From the IMG/VR virus record IMGVR_UViG_3300035670_000868, positions 1-32,134 of that record: 32,134 bases of DNA; one strand, given 5' to 3'. The translations under genes and the position numbers were made by a program. The DNA comes from a virus. Below, one piece after another: positions 7,527 to 27,250 of this stretch. Positions within the stretch are counted from its first letter, which is position 1, and every line of letters starts with the position of its first letter. The notes under the pieces are model-generated. The model worked only from the letters and a program-made list of their open reading frames with translations, was not told the origin of the DNA and made no database searches.

Positions 7527-9059
7527 ATGACAATATCTTCAACTACAGTTAAGAATAGTTACGCAGGTGATAATTCTACAACTACGTTTTCATATACATT
7601 TAAGATATTCCAAGACTCAGATATTCAAGTAATTATACGTTCAGCTAATGGAACTGAAACAGTTAAAACAATTACAACCCACTATACAGTAACAGGTGCT
7701 GGTAACTCTGGTGGTGGATCAGTTATATTTACATCAGGTAATATTCCAACATCTACTGAAACAGTTGTATTAAGACGTAACATTCCACAAACACAATCAA
7801 TAGATTATATCGCTAACGATCCATTCCCTGCTGAATCGCATGAAGAAGGTTTAGACAGAGCAACAATGGCAATTCAACAATTGCAAGAAGAAGTAACAAG
7901 ATCTTTAAAATTATCTAAAACAAATACAATGACATCTACTGAGTTTACAGTGGGTGCATCAGATCGTGCTAATAAGATTTTAGCATTTGATACTAATGGT
8001 GAATTATCAGTTACACAAGAACTTGGAACTAACAGAGGTTCATGGAGTGCTGGTATTACATACAATGCCAGAGATATTGTAAAAGATGGTTCTAACAACA
8101 ACGTATATCTTTGTAACACAACTCATACGTCTACAGGTACAACTCCAATCAGTTCTAATGCTGATGTAGCTAAATGGGATTTAATTGTTGATGCACAATC
8201 TGCTACAAACTCAGCTAATGCAGCTGCGAACCATGCTTCTAACAGTTCTAATTTTGCTAACAACTCATCTAACTCAGCTAATACTGCAGCCAATCACGCA
8301 TCTAATGCAAGTAATCACGCATCTAATGCTTCTAACTCTGCAACTAATGCAGCTACATATTTAAGTTCAGTACAAGCTAATGCAAATGCTGCAACTAATT
8401 CTGCTAGCAATGCTTCTAACTTTGCAAACAATTCTAGTAACAGTGCCAACTCAGCTGCAAATCATTCTGCTAACTCAAGTAACTTTGCTAACAATAGTTC
8501 TAATAGTGCTAATGATTCAGCTAACCACGCAGCAAATTCTAGCAACTTTGCTAATAACAGTTCTAATAGTGCAAACACTTCTGCTAATCATGCTGCCAAT
8601 TCATCTAACTTTGCAAATAGCAGTTCAAACCATGCGGCAAACAGTTCAAACTTTGCCAATGCTTCTAGCAATCATGCAAGTAATTCATCTAATCATGCTG
8701 CTAACTCCAGTAACTTTGCTAATACATCTAGTAACCATGCAGCTAATTCAAGTAACTTTGCTAATAATTCTAGTAACTTTGCTAACACAGCTTCTGATGC
8801 TGCTAATGCCGCAAACAGTGCAAGAGATGCTGCTCTAACAGCAACTGACAATTTTGAAGATATATACTTGGGACAAAAAGCAAGTGATCCAACATTAGAT
8901 AATGATAATGATCCTTTAACACCAGGAGATCTATATTTTAACAATAGTTCAAATACATTGAAATATTACACAGGTTCTACTTGGCTAACTGTAGAAGCTA
9001 CTGATACAAGTACATTTGCAACAAAAGGATTTGCTCTAGCTGTATCTATTGCATTATAA
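7527..9059 (+). CDS. Tail fibre with T7 gp17-type N-terminal attachment domain
   Basis: 510 residues. Residues ~1-150 (NSYAGDNSTTTFSYTFKI, then VLRRNIPQTQ and DPFPAESHEEGLDRATM) are the phage T7 tail-fibre N-terminal domain that docks onto the tail. Residues ~218-435 are a low-complexity rod of heptads of the form [A/S]N[F/H/S]A[N/S]xS, alternating HAANS and FANNS types. Residues ~440-510 hold a short domain (DPLTPGDLYFNNSSN, YYTGSTW) found near the end of many marine phage fibres. A good AAGGAA ribosome-binding site precedes the ATG. The repetitive DNA leaves long open frames in other frames, which are not genes. Likely the trimeric fibre that carries or positions the adhesins encoded downstream. 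Confidence 0.85.
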   Translation: MTISSTTVKNSYAGDNSTTTFSYTFKIFQDSDIQVIIRSANGTETVKTITTHYTVTGAGNSGGGSVIFTSGNIPTSTETVVLRRNIPQTQSIDYIANDPFPAESHEEGLDRATMAIQQLQEEVTRSLKLSKTNTMTSTEFTVGASDRANKILAFDTNGELSVTQELGTNRGSWSAGITYNARDIVKDGSNNNVYLCNTTHTSTGTTPISSNADVAKWDLIVDAQSATNSANAAANHASNSSNFANNSSNSANTAANHASNASNHASNASNSATNAATYLSSVQANANAATNSASNASNFANNSSNSANSAANHSANSSNFANNSSNSANDSANHAANSSNFANNSSNSANTSANHAANSSNFANSSSNHAANSSNFANASSNHASNSSNHAANSSNFANTSSNHAANSSNFANNSSNFANTASDAANAANSARDAALTATDNFEDIYLGQKASDPTLDNDNDPLTPGDLYFNNSSNTLKYYTGSTWLTVEATDTSTFATKGFALAVSIAL

Positions 9060-11707: not shown

Positions 11708-12535
11708 ATGTTTATTGAAAACAAATATAAAGTTTGGCATGATAAGATAATTGCTAGAGCTAACAACAGAACATTAGAAGGATATAAAGAAGTTCACCAT
11801 ATTATTCCTAAAAGCTGTGGTGGTTCAAATGATAAAGATAATATTGTTAATCTTACTGCAAGAGAACATTATATAATTCATTTATTGTTACCTTATTGTA
11901 CTTCAGGTAATGCTAAGCATAAGATGCTAAATGCTTTTATATTTATGACATCTAAGTCTAGGTTCTGCAAAAGAGATTATAAGATTCATTCAAGAGTATA
12001 TCAAAAATTAAGAAGTGAATTTGCTGCATCATTAAAAGGTAGAAGATTAACTCCTGAGTGGAAAGCAAAAATATCTAAAACATTAACAGGAACTAAATTA
12101 CCAGAATCAACTAGAAGAAAAATTAGCTTAGCAAATATGGGTAGAGAAGTAAGCGAAAAAAACAAATTAGCTTTATCTATTCGTAGTATAGGTAATAAAT
12201 ATAATCTTGGTAAAAAAACATCATTAGAAACTAAAAGAAAACTATCTATTATTAATACTGGTAAAAAACATACAGAAGAAGCTAAAGCAAAAATTAAATA
12301 TGCTAGACAGTTTCAAGTTTGCTCAGACGAACAAAGAAAAAATTATAGTATTACTTATTCAAATTTAATTTGGGTTAATAAAGATAACAAGTCTAAAAGA
12401 ATACAAAAAGAATTAAAGCAAGAATATTTGAATAATGGATATAAACTTGGTAGAGATATGTCTTACATGACTAAAGAATTAAAAGATATTTTTGCACAAA
12501 AAACAAAAGCATATTGGGAAAGGAGAGTAGCATAG
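11708..12535 (+). CDS. Free-standing HNH endonuclease with NUMOD3-like repeats
   Basis: 275 residues. The N-terminal HNH motif is visible: YKEVHHIIPKSCGGSNDKDN (H30, H31), then NIVNLTAREHYIIH (N45/N48, H54, H58), a metal-dependent nicking/cutting fold. Residues ~92-205 carry several copies of the short DNA-binding NUMOD3-type repeat (KGRRLTPEWKAKISKTL, GTKLPESTRRKISLANMG, GKKHTEEAKAKIKYAR). This arrangement is typical of homing endonucleases of phages. It sits between adhesin modules 2 and 3 with no associated intron visible, so it may be a selfish gene promoting its own spread, and with it the neighbouring adhesins. The stop abuts the TTG start of the next gene, and its tail end supplies that gene's AGGAGAG ribosome-binding site. 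Confidence 0.85.
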   Translation: MFIENKYKVWHDKIIARANNRTLEGYKEVHHIIPKSCGGSNDKDNIVNLTAREHYIIHLLLPYCTSGNAKHKMLNAFIFMTSKSRFCKRDYKIHSRVYQKLRSEFAASLKGRRLTPEWKAKISKTLTGTKLPESTRRKISLANMGREVSEKNKLALSIRSIGNKYNLGKKTSLETKRKLSIINTGKKHTEEAKAKIKYARQFQVCSDEQRKNYSITYSNLIWVNKDNKSKRIQKELKQEYLNNGYKLGRDMSYMTKELKDIFAQKTKAYWERRVA

Positions 12536-15077: not shown

Positions 15078-15105
15078 GGTGGTAGCAATACCACCTTTAC
15101 TTATC
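15078..15105 (+). terminator. GNRA-capped stem-loop, probable terminator
   Basis: GGTGGTA (15078-15084), tetraloop GCAA, then TACCACC (15089-15095): a perfect 7-bp GC-containing stem with a GNRA loop, followed by TTTACTT. It lies 20 bases after the acidic small gene. The U-tract is weak, so RNA stability or processing is also possible. Confidence 0.5.
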
Positions 15106-15109
15106 CACA
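15101..15109 (+). promoter_or_regulatory. Perfect DnaA box TTATCCACA
   Basis: An exact match to the bacterial DnaA-box consensus, directly after the stem-loop at 15078. A second exact copy lies at 15715-15723 and both share the longer context TTTACTTATCCACA, flanking the HNH gene at 15157. A third is beside the iterons at 24154. Confidence 0.6.
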
Positions 15110-15156: not shown

Positions 15157-15699
15157 ATGCCACTCAAAAATATAGAACAACTTAAAGCATATAAAAAAAC
15201 ATATTATTTAAATAACAAAGATAATATAAAAAAATATCAATCAAAATATTATTTAAACAATAAAGAAAAGTTTAAAGAAATAAATAGATTATATAAATTA
15301 AATAATAAAGAGTTTATAAAAGAATATCTTTTAAAAAATAAAGAAAAAATTTCAAAACAAAGAAAGCAATATTATTTAAATAACGCAGAAAAACAAAAAA
15401 AATATACTAAAAATTATACTTTAAATAATAAAGATAAAATAAAAGAATATCATTTAAAAAATCCACACACTAAAAAAGCGATAACTGCTAAAAGACGTGC
15501 CTTAAAATTAAAAGCTACACCTAAGTTTGCTAATCTTAATAAGATAAGAGAGATCTACAAGAACTGTCCCAAAGGCTATGTTGTTGATCATATAGTGCCA
15601 TTACAAGGTAAGATTGTTTGTGGCTTGCATGTTGAGTGGAATCTTCAATATCTTACACCATCAGAAAACTCATCTAAGTCTAATAGATTTGTTTGGTAA
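15157..15699 (+). CDS. HNH endonuclease with lysine-rich repeated N-terminus
   Basis: 180 residues. The C-terminal ~45 residues are an HNH nuclease: CPKGYVVDHIVPLQGK (D144-H145), GLHVEWNLQYLTPSEN (H158, N162, N171) and a final K174. Residues 16-105 consist of about six imperfect repeats of YYLNNKxKxKxY spaced roughly 13-16 residues, very rich in K, N and Y, which probably form DNA-contacting helices. This architecture is known in phage HNH proteins. It is flanked on both sides by TTTACTTATCCACA repeats, which may mark its insertion limits. Likely a homing-type selfish gene. Confidence 0.8.
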   Translation: MPLKNIEQLKAYKKTYYLNNKDNIKKYQSKYYLNNKEKFKEINRLYKLNNKEFIKEYLLKNKEKISKQRKQYYLNNAEKQKKYTKNYTLNNKDKIKEYHLKNPHTKKAITAKRRALKLKATPKFANLNKIREIYKNCPKGYVVDHIVPLQGKIVCGLHVEWNLQYLTPSENSSKSNRFVW

Positions 15700-15714
15700 G
15701 CTACCCTTATTTAC

Positions 15715-15723
15715 TTATCCACA
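15715..15723 (+). promoter_or_regulatory. Perfect DnaA box TTATCCACA (second copy)
   Basis: Exact DnaA-box consensus, 12 bases after the HNH stop. It repeats the sequence TTTACTTATCCACA found at 15096-15109 just before that HNH gene, so the pair forms a 14-bp direct repeat around the nuclease gene. Confidence 0.55.
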
Positions 15724-18594: not shown

Positions 18595-19101
18595 TTAGTT
18601 CTTAACATTATCCATCACATATTTATATCTATTCCAAATAATATTATCTGGTTTCCAGAAGTGCTGCTTATTAATTTTCATCTTAACATGGTGCATCATT
18701 GTGGTGTGATCTCTATTACCAAGTAATACACCTATCTTTGTGAATGGCATATCATACTTATCTCTTAATACATTTATTAATATGGATCGTGCAATCACAG
18801 CAGACTGAACTCTAGTTTGTGCAATGATCTCATTTACATCTATGTTTAATTGATTGGCAACGATTGCTAATATTTCTTTTACATTCTCAGGAACTACTAC
18901 ATCATTAATGGTTACATACTTAACCACTTCTTTAACAACTGTTTTCCTATGCCTAAAACTATTTCTAAAATATTCTCTTGCTAATTTATATCCAGTTCTA
19001 AATCCTGCACGATAAATTTTCTTTTCTCTTGGATCTAAGTTTGCAAAACTATTAAATGAATATCTTAATTTGATTTCACGTTTAAATTCTTTTGGTGTCA
19101 T
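18595..19101 (-). CDS. DnaA domain IV-like DNA-binding protein (no AAA+ domain)
   Basis: 168 residues. Residues ~73-145 match the DnaA DNA-binding domain: VKEILAIVANQLNIDVNEII, then TRVQSAVIARSILINVLRDK and the signature LLGNRDHTTMMHHVKMKI (DnaA consensus 'GGRDHTTV.HA..K'). The N-terminal ~70 residues are basic and unlike DnaA; no Walker motifs or AAA+ domain are present, so it cannot act as the ATP-driven initiator. It may bind DnaA boxes, three perfect copies of which occur in this window. It could regulate the phage origin, or compete with or recruit host DnaA. AAAGGG ribosome-binding site, preceded by small hairpin-forming repeats (ACAAC/GTTGT). Confidence 0.8.
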   Translation of the reverse strand: MTPKEFKREIKLRYSFNSFANLDPREKKIYRAGFRTGYKLAREYFRNSFRHRKTVVKEVVKYVTINDVVVPENVKEILAIVANQLNIDVNEIIAQTRVQSAVIARSILINVLRDKYDMPFTKIGVLLGNRDHTTMMHHVKMKINKQHFWKPDNIIWNRYKYVMDNVKN

Positions 19102-23873: not shown

Positions 23874-24596
23874 ATGGCTAAATATACTAAGTTAAATGGC
23901 GATATAGTGGAACACCCTCTATTTTTAGGCTTACCAGTGAGGAGGAAAGCTCATTGTTTTTCTGTGTTGGTAATGCTTTTAAGGTACGCTAATTATAAAA
24001 CTGGCGAGTGCTACCCAAGGCTTTCAACCATTGCCAAGCCTCTAGGTTTATCAAATGTCACAGTTTATAAGTGCATTAACACAATGATTGAAGGCGGCAT
24101 ACTTTTAAAGGAACGCTTACCTTCTACTAATTTATACAGAATTAACCCAGAATTTATCCACAGTGATATTAAAACTGTTAAGATCACTACCCCAAGTGAT
24201 ATTAAAACTGTTAAGGGGGATATTAAAACTATTAAGGGGGGTATTAAAACTGTTAAGGTATTAATAGAACATAATATAGAACAGTATATATATAACATAG
24301 ACAAGATCATAAATAATAATAAAGGTGATAAGGATAGAATAGTTTATTTAATCGCACAGGCTATTCCCCTGCCAGAATTAAACAACCTATTACTACAAAA
24401 CATTCATTCATATTACGTTAGGTTAGCCATAGATAAACATAGGGAAATGCTGCGTCAGAAAAATTTGTTGCCTGAAAGTGTTGCTAAGACACAGATAAGC
24501 CAAGCATTAAAGGCTAATGGTAAGAAGCGATCAGCAAACTATGTAGCCAAGGTAGAATATAACAAACGAAATGGTATCAAGCCATGGGAAAAATGA
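23874..24596 (+). CDS. Replication initiator, winged-helix (lambda O-like)
   Basis: 240 residues. Residues ~28-92 form a MarR/replication-type winged helix: FSVLVMLLRYANYKTGECYP, then RLSTIAKPLGLSNVTVYKCI and GGILLKERLPSTN, which is common in phage replication proteins of the lambda O/P22 gp18 type. Residues 97-129 are four tandem copies of DIKTVK/DIKTIK/GIKTVK encoded by DNA iterons at 24165-24257, as in lambda O, whose origin lies within its gene. The C-terminal domain is basic and helical and would bind a helicase loader or host protein. No DNA polymerase or helicase accompanies it, so it must use the host replisome. Confidence 0.75.
   Translation: MAKYTKLNGDIVEHPLFLGLPVRRKAHCFSVLVMLLRYANYKTGECYPRLSTIAKPLGLSNVTVYKCINTMIEGGILLKERLPSTNLYRINPEFIHSDIKTVKITTPSDIKTVKGDIKTIKGGIKTVKVLIEHNIEQYIYNIDKIINNNKGDKDRIVYLIAQAIPLPELNNLLLQNIHSYYVRLAIDKHREMLRQKNLLPESVAKTQISQALKANGKKRSANYVAKVEYNKRNGIKPWEK
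24154..24162 (+). promoter_or_regulatory. Perfect DnaA box next to iteron 1
   Basis: TTATCCACA, exact DnaA-box consensus, ends 2 bases before iteron 1 (24165). It lies in the initiator coding sequence. Confidence 0.65.
24165..24257 (+). repeat. Four origin iterons inside the initiator gene
   Basis: GATATTAAAACTGTTAAG at 24165-24182 and 24198-24215 (identical), GATATTAAAACTATTAAG at 24219-24236 (one change), and GGTATTAAAACTGTTAAG at 24240-24257 (one change). Start-to-start spacing is 33, 21 and 21 bp, near 3 and 2 helical turns, so all four face the same side of the helix. They encode the DIKTVK peptide repeats. Directly after them, 24258-24330 is strongly AT-rich with few G/C bases and could be the unwinding element. 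The whole resembles lambda ori. Confidence 0.75.
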
Positions 24597-24635: not shown

Positions 24636-25109
24636 ATGCCAGGAAGACCAAGCAGAAAGATTACTTGCATGGCAAATAAACGAAGAACAAATATTAGATG
24701 TTCAGCCAAGGGGTTTTTGGTCAACACATTTAATGCTGATGGTACGCCTAGGTATCTTTGTAGGATGCATGGGGGACAAGCATCAGATAATTTCGGTGTT
24801 AAACATAAGCAAGGAAGAGGTGGTTTTAAAAAGCCAGGTTATGATGATGAGGATAGGATTAAGTTGCTATCAAATTTAAAACAGTTTAAAAACAAGCCAA
24901 TAGAATATGTCAGAAATTACTACAACACAACAATCAAAGAACGAATTGATAATAAACGATACCGATCTGAATACAGTAGAAGAGCTGCTGACAGAAGGTT
25001 TAACGCTTACAGAGATTTTTACGGATCAAAAAGTCTTACCGATAACCTTACACAAATTCTACTCTTACTTAAGAAAGCCAGAAAACAAAGAGATCAAAGC
25101 CAGAATTGA
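24636..25109 (+). CDS. HGG-motif phage protein upstream of terS
   Basis: 157 residues. RRTNIRCSAKGFLVNTFNAD is followed by the diagnostic PRYLCRMHGGQASDN (C-x-x-H-G-G), the pattern of a small protein often encoded beside terminase genes; its C...CxxHGG residues may bind a metal. The last ~67 residues overlap the terminase small-subunit gene in another frame for 203 bp. The ATG at 24636 is preceded by GGGAGAAG. The conserved part ends near residue 80, so the overlapping tail may be an extension. An alternative frame from 24619 (86 residues) is a shadow. Confidence 0.65.
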   Translation: MPGRPSRKITCMANKRRTNIRCSAKGFLVNTFNADGTPRYLCRMHGGQASDNFGVKHKQGRGGFKKPGYDDEDRIKLLSNLKQFKNKPIEYVRNYYNTTIKERIDNKRYRSEYSRRAADRRFNAYRDFYGSKSLTDNLTQILLLLKKARKQRDQSQN

Positions 25110-25407
25110 TGAGGCTAGAAGGCAAGGGGTTCAAACTTTAGTTGATAAACTATTACAAATTTATAATACAAATTTAGATGATAAAACCTTAGATCCTGCT
25201 GTGGTAGTGTGGACCAGAGATAGAGCAGCTATGGTTAAGTGGGTTGCTTCTAAGATTTCAGATATTTATTCTGACAAGCCAAAGGATATTAATATTAATA
25301 AGCAACAATCAATTGTTGTTAGTTGGTTAGACTCTCCTGAGTTAGAACAGAAATATACTCAGTATGAAAAGATAAACGAAGAAAAAAAAGAAATTATAGA
25401 ACAGTAA
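24907..25407 (+). CDS. terS: Terminase small subunit (Sf6-type)
   Basis: 166 residues. EELLTEGLTLTEIFTDQKVL, then TLHKFYSYLRKPENKEIKAR and IDEARRQGVQTLVDKLLQIY match the N-terminal DNA-recognition helices and hinge of Sf6-type small terminases ('eG.sl..I....g.P....vy.wL......f...i..Ar'). RDRAAMVKWVASKISDIYSD resembles the 'RI....WLA.K..P..YG' segment. It recognises phage DNA ends for packaging. It begins inside the HGG gene and is separated from the large subunit gene by a minus-strand block and the main noncoding region. Confidence 0.75.
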   Translation: MSEITTTQQSKNELIINDTDLNTVEELLTEGLTLTEIFTDQKVLPITLHKFYSYLRKPENKEIKARIDEARRQGVQTLVDKLLQIYNTNLDDKTLDPAVVVWTRDRAAMVKWVASKISDIYSDKPKDININKQQSIVVSWLDSPELEQKYTQYEKINEEKKEIIEQ

Positions 25408-26510: not shown

Positions 26511-27250
26511 ATTATTTACCTTTGTTGTTTAATTAAATAACCTTTTAGGGTATGAATAATAATAAGTAAATACATAAAATGAACTAAAATATTAAATAAC
26601 TGATTTTATTATCTTATTTCTTTATATCTATATTTTACGCCAATTAAAAAAGGGAAAGGCAAAAAGAGAAAATTATATAAAAGAGAAATAGCTTTAAACA
26701 TATCCTGGACATTGGACCAGTTTATCAACAGCTAACTATTAGATTGTATTTTAGGAATTTAATAGCAACTAATATTAAACAATAGATGAAACAAAATCAT
26801 TGGTTGTGTGTGTAAGTATTAAGATTAAAACATCAATAAAAGATCCTATTTATAATCACATCCAATCGTTTGCTTCTTATGCGTTTATAATTCGGTGTCA
26901 CATATATATCACAATGTGTTGTATAAATGTCACAGTATTATATTAATACAACCATAAATATATTTCCGATAATTAAACGTTATCGGAACTTTACTATAAT
27001 AGATTATCTATTCCTACAAGCTCGCACAATTTCAGATTGCACACCCCCCTATACCCCCATAAACACGCCGCCATTTTTATTATATATATACATGGGACTT
27101 TTTAGGATACCTTTAGCCAGTCAGCCTTCCACAGGATTCCGCCGCACCAAAGTTTACAAAAACATAAATGGGTATATCCACAAAACAACCCGCACCTTTT
27201 TCCTTTGCCTGACCACCTTAATATAATATTAAAACACTACCTATTGTAGT
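26511..27250. other. Main noncoding region between divergent operons
   Basis: About 740 bp separating the minus-strand small-gene block from the plus-strand terminase operon. It is strongly AT-rich up to ~27015, then shows a C-rich patch (27040-27075, with CCCCCC and CCCCC runs and CGCCGCC), unlike the rest of the genome. It holds TGTCACA repeats at ~26896 and ~26928, the dif-like stem-loop at 26962-26990, a near-DnaA box (ATATCCACA, 27174-27182) and a TATAAT at 27222-27227 that may serve the terL operon. Likely the regulatory and/or packaging-end region. The 99-residue ORF at 26927 is not convincing. Confidence 0.55.
26962..26990 (+). other. Xer/dif-like inverted repeat
   Basis: Arms ATTTCCGATAA (26962-26972) and TTATCGGAACT (26980-26990) around a 7-bp centre TTAAACG. 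TTCCGATAA/TTATCGGAA is a perfect 9-bp inverted repeat. Arms ending -ATAA and starting TTAT- resemble XerC/XerD half-sites, though a standard dif centre is 6 bp. A plain stem-loop or operator remains possible. Confidence 0.35.

What the first reader, a model, noticed from the sequence alone, without database searches (positions are those of the whole stretch)
24154..24330. Lambda-style origin inside the initiator gene: phased iterons, DnaA box and AT-rich stretch
Four 18-bp repeats (two identical, two with one change) start 33, 21 and 21 bp apart, so they lie on one face of the helix. A perfect TTATCCACA sits 2 bp before the first and an AT-rich stretch follows the last. The encoded protein has a winged-helix domain, and the iterons translate into peptide repeats between its two halves. 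This is the layout of lambda O/ori. In a phage with no visible polymerase or helicase, it suggests an independent origin that recruits the host replisome.
Basis: partly seen in the sequence, partly recalled or inferred. Interest (0 to 1): 0.78.

Follow-up and report, generated by a model that had tools for sequence, protein, structure and literature searches.

The report
Replication origin inside pelagiphage initiator gene
A very abundant family of viruses that infect SAR11 bacteria appears to carry its DNA replication start site inside the gene for the protein that recognises it, a gene so far labelled a transcription regulator, which makes the copying of these viruses directly testable.

Summary
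In detail: four 18-bp repeats start at 24165, 24198, 24219 and 24240, in the linker of a winged-helix gene (23874-24596), with a perfect DnaA box before and an AT-rich stretch after. The gene is the counterpart of the 'putative transcriptional regulator' of HTVC010P-type pelagiphages. Over 90 homologues form 32 linker families; 23 have their best DNA repeat spaced exactly 21 or 22 bp (shuffled mean 1.7, maximum 5). At 22 bp the copies lie in different reading frames: one DNA word reads SKIAV in one copy and QDSRF in the next. The repeat is kept as DNA, not as peptide. Repeat word and winged-helix domain stay together while the C-terminal domain is exchanged, and the AT-rich flank is general (25 of 28). 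This is the lambda O / SPP1 oriL layout, an intragenic origin. Two corrections: the DnaA box is not general (absent from the isolates' linkers), and no helicase loader is visible while the C-terminal domain matches no solved fold, so helicase loading is open. The phage also encodes a DnaA domain-IV protein. Origin activity itself is untested. New member of a known kind, in a family whose replication mode was only guessed at.

The parts
23874..24596 (+). initiator gene, 240 aa; homologue of the 'putative transcriptional regulator' of HTVC010P-type pelagiphages
   Evidence: HTH_36 E=4e-8; PHROG replication initiation / O-like / DnaD-like loader families E 5e-7 to 1e-5; relatives in 19 Pelagibacter phage records
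23901..24158 (+). winged-helix DNA-binding domain, about residues 10-95
   Evidence: AlphaFold2 pLDDT about 90; generic winged-helix matches in PDB
24165..24182 (+). iteron 1 GATATTAAAACTGTTAAG
24198..24215 (+). iteron 2 GATATTAAAACTGTTAAG, 33 bp after iteron 1
24219..24236 (+). iteron 3 GATATTAAAACTATTAAG, 21 bp after iteron 2
24240..24257 (+). iteron 4 GGTATTAAAACTGTTAAG, 21 bp after iteron 3
24258..24330 (.). AT-rich stretch (81% AT), candidate unwinding element
   Evidence: the stretch after the iterons is richer in AT than both flanking coding parts in 25 of 28 families
24154..24162 (+). perfect DnaA box TTATCCACA; kept only in the window's own near-identical group, possibly accessory or fortuitous
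24276..24593 (+). helical C-terminal domain (from about residue 135), exchanged between phages independently of winged helix and iterons; ends in the conserved NGIKPWEK motif
   Evidence: no Pfam or PDB match

Best explanation
The gene encodes the replication initiator of an HTVC010P-type pelagiphage, and the linker-coding part of the gene is the phage's replication origin. The winged-helix domain binds the phased iterons on one face of the DNA and wraps them; the adjacent AT-rich stretch opens; the C-terminal domain, directly or through a host factor, brings in the host DnaB helicase, and the host primase and polymerase III do the rest, since the phage encodes none of these. Shown here: phased DNA repeats in the linker, selection on them as DNA across the family, the linked winged-helix/iteron module, the AT-rich flank, absence of polymerase, helicase and primase annotation in complete relatives. 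Inferred: binding, opening, helicase recruitment and origin activity. The DnaA box is at most an accessory in the window's own group.
For: Repeats exceed dinucleotide and synonymous-codon nulls in the window and in most families. 23 of 32 linker families have best spacing 21 or 22 bp; shuffled mean 1.7, maximum 5. In the 22-bp families the copies are in different codon phases and encode different peptides; isolates HTVC010P, Greip, HTVC204P and Skadi-1 have such 22-bp pairs. Lederberg and L086 have 32+22 bp where the window has 33+21. In seven genomes the linker pair ranks 1st to 4th among all 21/22-bp-spaced repeats. N-domain and iteron identities correlate at 0.82 against 0.57 for C-domain and iterons; 12 pairs share the C-domain (at least 90%) but not the N-domain (at most 70%), and iterons follow the N-domain; no pair breaks the N-iteron link. 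AT-rich flank in 25 of 28 families, p about 1e-5. PHROG replication-initiation or DnaD-like loader families in all seven homologues tested. No polymerase, helicase or primase annotated in six complete relatives; the Skadi authors infer host DNA polymerase use (PMC10504331).
Against: No direct evidence of replication start or binding. The L025 group (10 loci) has no clear direct repeat and the L045 group only about one and a half copies. Most marine phages have only two copies. The window's own iteron is not significantly palindromic. The C-terminal domain matches nothing known and no helicase loader was recognised. Cumulative GC skew follows gene direction and does not help. The 32 families are related, so they are not 32 independent tests.
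Confidence: 0.8

Rival explanations
1. The protein is a transcription regulator, as annotated, and the repeats are an operator inside its own gene through which it represses or activates early transcription.
For: Most relatives are annotated as transcriptional regulators; HTH_36 is a general DNA-binding domain; the linked N-domain/iteron module would also fit an operator.
Against: PHROG matches are to replication initiation families; an operator in mid-gene next to an AT-rich stretch, kept across nearly all families, would be unusual; the phages have no other visible initiator apart from the DnaA domain-IV protein, which lacks an ATPase domain.
Confidence: 0.11
2. The repeats are a packaging or recombination site read by another protein, for instance the small terminase encoded about 650 bp downstream (24907-25407).
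For: A Sf6-like small terminase gene lies close by, and such sites can consist of phased repeats.
Against: Iteron words follow the initiator's own winged-helix domain and are not separated from it in any pair examined; the site lies inside that gene in the homologues.
Confidence: 0.05
3. The repeats matter as protein: a repetitive disordered linker that arose by tandem codon duplication.
For: In 21-bp families the copies are in frame and encode peptide repeats; the linker is predicted to be disordered.
Against: In 22-bp families the same DNA word is read in different frames and the peptide does not repeat; the DNA match exceeds synonymous shuffles.
Confidence: 0.03

Closest known systems
Phage lambda O gene / ori-lambda (and related lambdoid origins; PMC7466680)
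   Same: Initiator with N-terminal DNA-binding domain; phased iterons followed by an AT-rich tract in the middle of the initiator gene; variable iteron number; host polymerase and primase.
   Different: No match to a lambda O Pfam family; lambda O works with the helicase loader P, here no loader is recognised; the C-terminal domain has no known fold; many different iteron words within one phage family.
Bacillus phage SPP1 oriL within gene 38 (G38P; PMC6316719)
   Same: Direct repeats and AT-rich unwinding element inside the initiator gene, bound by the initiator.
   Different: SPP1 has a second origin (oriR) and its own loader gp39 and helicase gp40; in the window the iteron word occurs only as one cluster and no helicase is seen.
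Iteron plasmid origins with adjacent DnaA boxes (pSC101/RK2 type; from general knowledge)
   Same: Iterons, AT-rich region and, in the window's own group, a DnaA box.
   Different: The DnaA box is not kept across the family; the iterons lie inside the initiator gene.

Membership tests
lambda O / ori-lambda type intragenic origin | N-terminal winged-helix or comparable DNA-binding domain in a phage initiator | tested here: met
   HTH_36 E=4e-8, model, PHROG O-like E=9e-7
lambda O / ori-lambda type intragenic origin | phased iterons inside the initiator gene | tested here: met
lambda O / ori-lambda type intragenic origin | AT-rich tract next to the iterons | tested here: met
   25 of 28 families
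lambda O / ori-lambda type intragenic origin | each iteron is a dyad bound by a dimer | tested here: inconclusive
   best dyad p of 0.05 or less in 12 of 32 families, not in the window (0.42)
lambda O / ori-lambda type intragenic origin | sequence homology to a lambda O Pfam family | tested here: not met
   only HTH families and a weak DnaD_N among the matches
lambda O / ori-lambda type intragenic origin | neighbouring helicase loader (P or DnaC-like) | tested here: not met
   downstream gene 24636-25109 matches no Pfam, PHROG or NCBIfam family; none among the other products searched
lambda O / ori-lambda type intragenic origin | initiator binds iterons and replication starts there | not testable with these tools
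   needs footprinting and infected-cell read depth
Iteron origin with DnaA box | DnaA box conserved beside the iterons | tested here: not met
   6 of 32 families, 4 at one shared codon site, none in the isolates' linkers, absent in close relative L008
HTVC010P-type pelagiphages (proposed Ubiqueviridae) | shared portal, gene order and DnaA_C gene | tested here: met
   portal 75-77% identical to the best-matching isolates; initiator and DnaA_C relatives each in 19 Pelagibacter records; gene order
DnaD/DnaB2-like helicase loader | DnaD-like C-terminal domain | tested here: not met
   PHROG DnaD-like match over the whole protein (E=6e-7), but the C-terminal part alone has no Pfam match and no PDB match by sequence or fold

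The most novel reading that the evidence does not exclude
These phages take over replication with two small proteins: an initiator whose previously unseen C-terminal domain loads the host helicase at the intragenic origin without a separate loader, and a DnaA domain-IV protein without an ATPase domain that occupies DnaA boxes and shuts off the host origin.
Probability: 0.2. Interest if true: 0.8.

Novelty: new member of a known kind. Interest (0 to 1): 0.58.

Why it matters
HTVC010P-type phages are among the most abundant viruses known in the ocean, and how they replicate has only been guessed at (host polymerase, perhaps rolling circle; PMC10504331). This gives each isolate a named initiator gene and an origin located to within about 100 bp, testable in cultured HTCC1062 infections. 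It also corrects a copied annotation ('putative transcriptional regulator'), and the many different iteron words, each tied to its own winged-helix domain, are a natural data set for studying how initiator and origin change together.

Tried and rejected
DnaA box as a defining element: rejected for the family. The two other perfect boxes as an alternative DnaA-type origin in the AT-rich 14.5-15.7 kb region: they are copies of one 14-bp repeat flanking an endonuclease gene. GC skew: extremes follow changes of gene direction, uninformative. DnaD-like or other known loader fold for the C-terminal domain: no support. Relatives in bacterial genomes: none found. RNA families and tRNA: none. Promoter scan: no more sites than in shuffled sequence. 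Literature: no paper found describing an origin in these phages in the library searched; most subscription journals are not covered.

Full report
Observation. The window is a 32,134-bp virus record. All details in the finding are present. Four copies of GATATTAAAACTGTTAAG (two exact, two with one change) start at 24165, 24198, 24219 and 24240; TTATCCACA lies at 24154-24162 and an 81% AT stretch at 24258-24330. The repeat cluster occurs once in the window, and 0 of 100 shuffles gave four matches. A null that keeps the peptide and redraws synonymous codons never reached the observed DNA repeat score (0 of 300).

Identity. The gene 23874-24596 has an HTH_36 winged helix (E = 4e-8) and matches several PHROG families named replication initiation, O-like or DnaD-like loader (best E = 5e-7). 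Its relatives in cultured phages are all in Pelagibacter phages of the HTVC010P type, including HTVC010P gp57, Greip gp33, Lederberg_38 and Skadi1_17; nearly all are annotated 'putative transcriptional regulator'. The window's portal protein is 75-77% identical to those of the best-matching isolates, and gene order around the initiator agrees. By comparison with the complete relatives, the part missing from the window holds capsid and tail-tube genes, so the replication region is complete; six complete relatives carry no annotated DNA polymerase, helicase or primase. The Skadi authors also infer host polymerase use, call these genes transcriptional regulators, mention a helicase loader and suggest rolling-circle-like replication (PMC10504331); the deposited Skadi-1 annotation names no helicase loader.

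Homologues. Two scans of viral contigs gave over 90 homologues, which, with the isolates, fall into 32 linker families. In 23 of 32 the best direct repeat has a start-to-start distance of exactly 21 (10 families) or 22 bp (13 families); shuffled linkers give a mean of 1.7 and at most 5. Others have 44, 33 or 54 bp; the 54-bp cases (Lederberg and L086) resolve into 32+22, the counterpart of the window's 33+21. These distances are near whole numbers of helical turns. The number of copies varies, for example five in L020 and four in L016.

DNA, not peptide. A distance of 22 bp is not a multiple of three. In L032 the word CAAGATAGCCGTT is read as part of SKIAV in one copy and QDSRF in the next; in L042 ATGTTTCAAA is read MFQ and then NVSN; in L011 the repeat is read SSQGD and then AVRLT. 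HTVC010P, Greip, HTVC204P and Skadi-1 have such 22-bp pairs. A purely protein-level reason for the repeats is thereby nearly excluded. In seven genomes the linker pair ranks 1st to 4th among all 21/22-bp-spaced repeats.

Module. Pairwise DNA identity of the N-domain and of the iteron stretch correlate at 0.82, of the C-domain and the iterons at 0.57. Twelve pairs have C-domains at least 90% identical and N-domains at most 70% identical, and the iterons differ as the N-domains do; no pair was found in which N-domain and iterons disagree. This is what a binding domain and its own site would show. Physical closeness contributes, but no exchange was seen on the N-terminal side of the iterons.

AT-rich flank. 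The 70 bp after the iterons are richer in AT than both flanking coding parts in 25 of 28 families (Wilcoxon p about 1e-5 against the C-part).

DnaA box. Six of 32 linkers contain TTWTNCACA (1.2 expected from synonymous shuffles), but four of these are TTATACACA at the same conserved codons; none of the isolates has one in the linker, and L008, 89% identical to the window protein, has lost it. It may help in the window's group but is not part of the family's layout.

Structure and mechanism. The model has a confident winged helix (about residues 10-95), a disordered linker that corresponds to the iterons, and a helical C-terminal domain. The winged helix resembles many solved regulators and, among predicted viral proteins, replisome organizers and a lambda GpO-type protein (whole-chain TM-scores are low because the relative placement of the two parts is not fixed). 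The C-terminal domain alone matches no solved structure and no Pfam family. The most likely working is: the initiator binds the iterons, the AT-rich stretch melts, and host DnaB, primase and polymerase III are brought in. Binding, melting and recruitment are inferred from lambda, where two iterons plus the AT-rich region are the minimal fragment competent for unwinding (as cited in PMC7466680), and from SPP1, where oriL lies within gene 38 (PMC6316719).

DnaA domain-IV protein. The window gene 18595-19101 (-) matches DnaA domain IV (PF08299 E = 1.5e-15; PDB 8btg and 1j1v) and shows no ATPase domain. Relatives occur in 19 Pelagibacter records, the same number as the initiator. R97, R105 and the DHTT motif are invariant in the seven sequences aligned, so DnaA-box binding is likely; a role in blocking host initiation is a hypothesis only. 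Chen et al. already list DnaA among the genes found in all HTVC010P-related genomes (PMC6811365).

Verdict. A real intragenic iteron-origin layout, strongly supported as a DNA-level function and most likely the phage's replication origin; a known kind of origin in a family where, in the papers searched, none had been described. Origin activity needs experiment.

Noticed in passing
window 18595-19101 (-): Phage-encoded DnaA domain-IV protein without ATPase domain, with invariant R97, R105 and DHTT across seven aligned relatives; found in 19 Pelagibacter phage records. Could occupy host DnaA boxes.
   Followed up: partly
window 15096-15109 and 15710-15723: A 14-bp direct repeat TTTACTTATCCACA flanks an endonuclease VII-like gene (15157-15699), as an inserted gene with a duplicated target would; it accounts for two of the three perfect DnaA boxes.
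   Followed up: partly
window 8480-8789: Tandem repeats with periods 21, 42 and 63 bp inside the tail-fibre gene 7527-9059.
   Followed up: no
window 11708-12535: Homing endonuclease gene (phrog_655, E = 3e-41) among tail-fibre genes.
   Followed up: no
L025 1-9940 and nine related loci (L026, L063, L068, L069, L071, L072, L073, L074, L076): Initiator group without clear direct repeats in the linker; two weak dyads 32 bp apart instead. Exception to the rule.
   Followed up: partly
window 24570-24593, end of the initiator: Strongly conserved C-terminal motif NGIKPWEK, replaced in some relatives by NLDYKG or NLDWKG; possible contact point for a replication protein.
   Followed up: no
window 26964-26988: Ten-pair inverted repeat TTCCGATAA..TTATCGGAA inside the small ORF 26927-27226, just upstream of the terminase region.
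   Followed up: no
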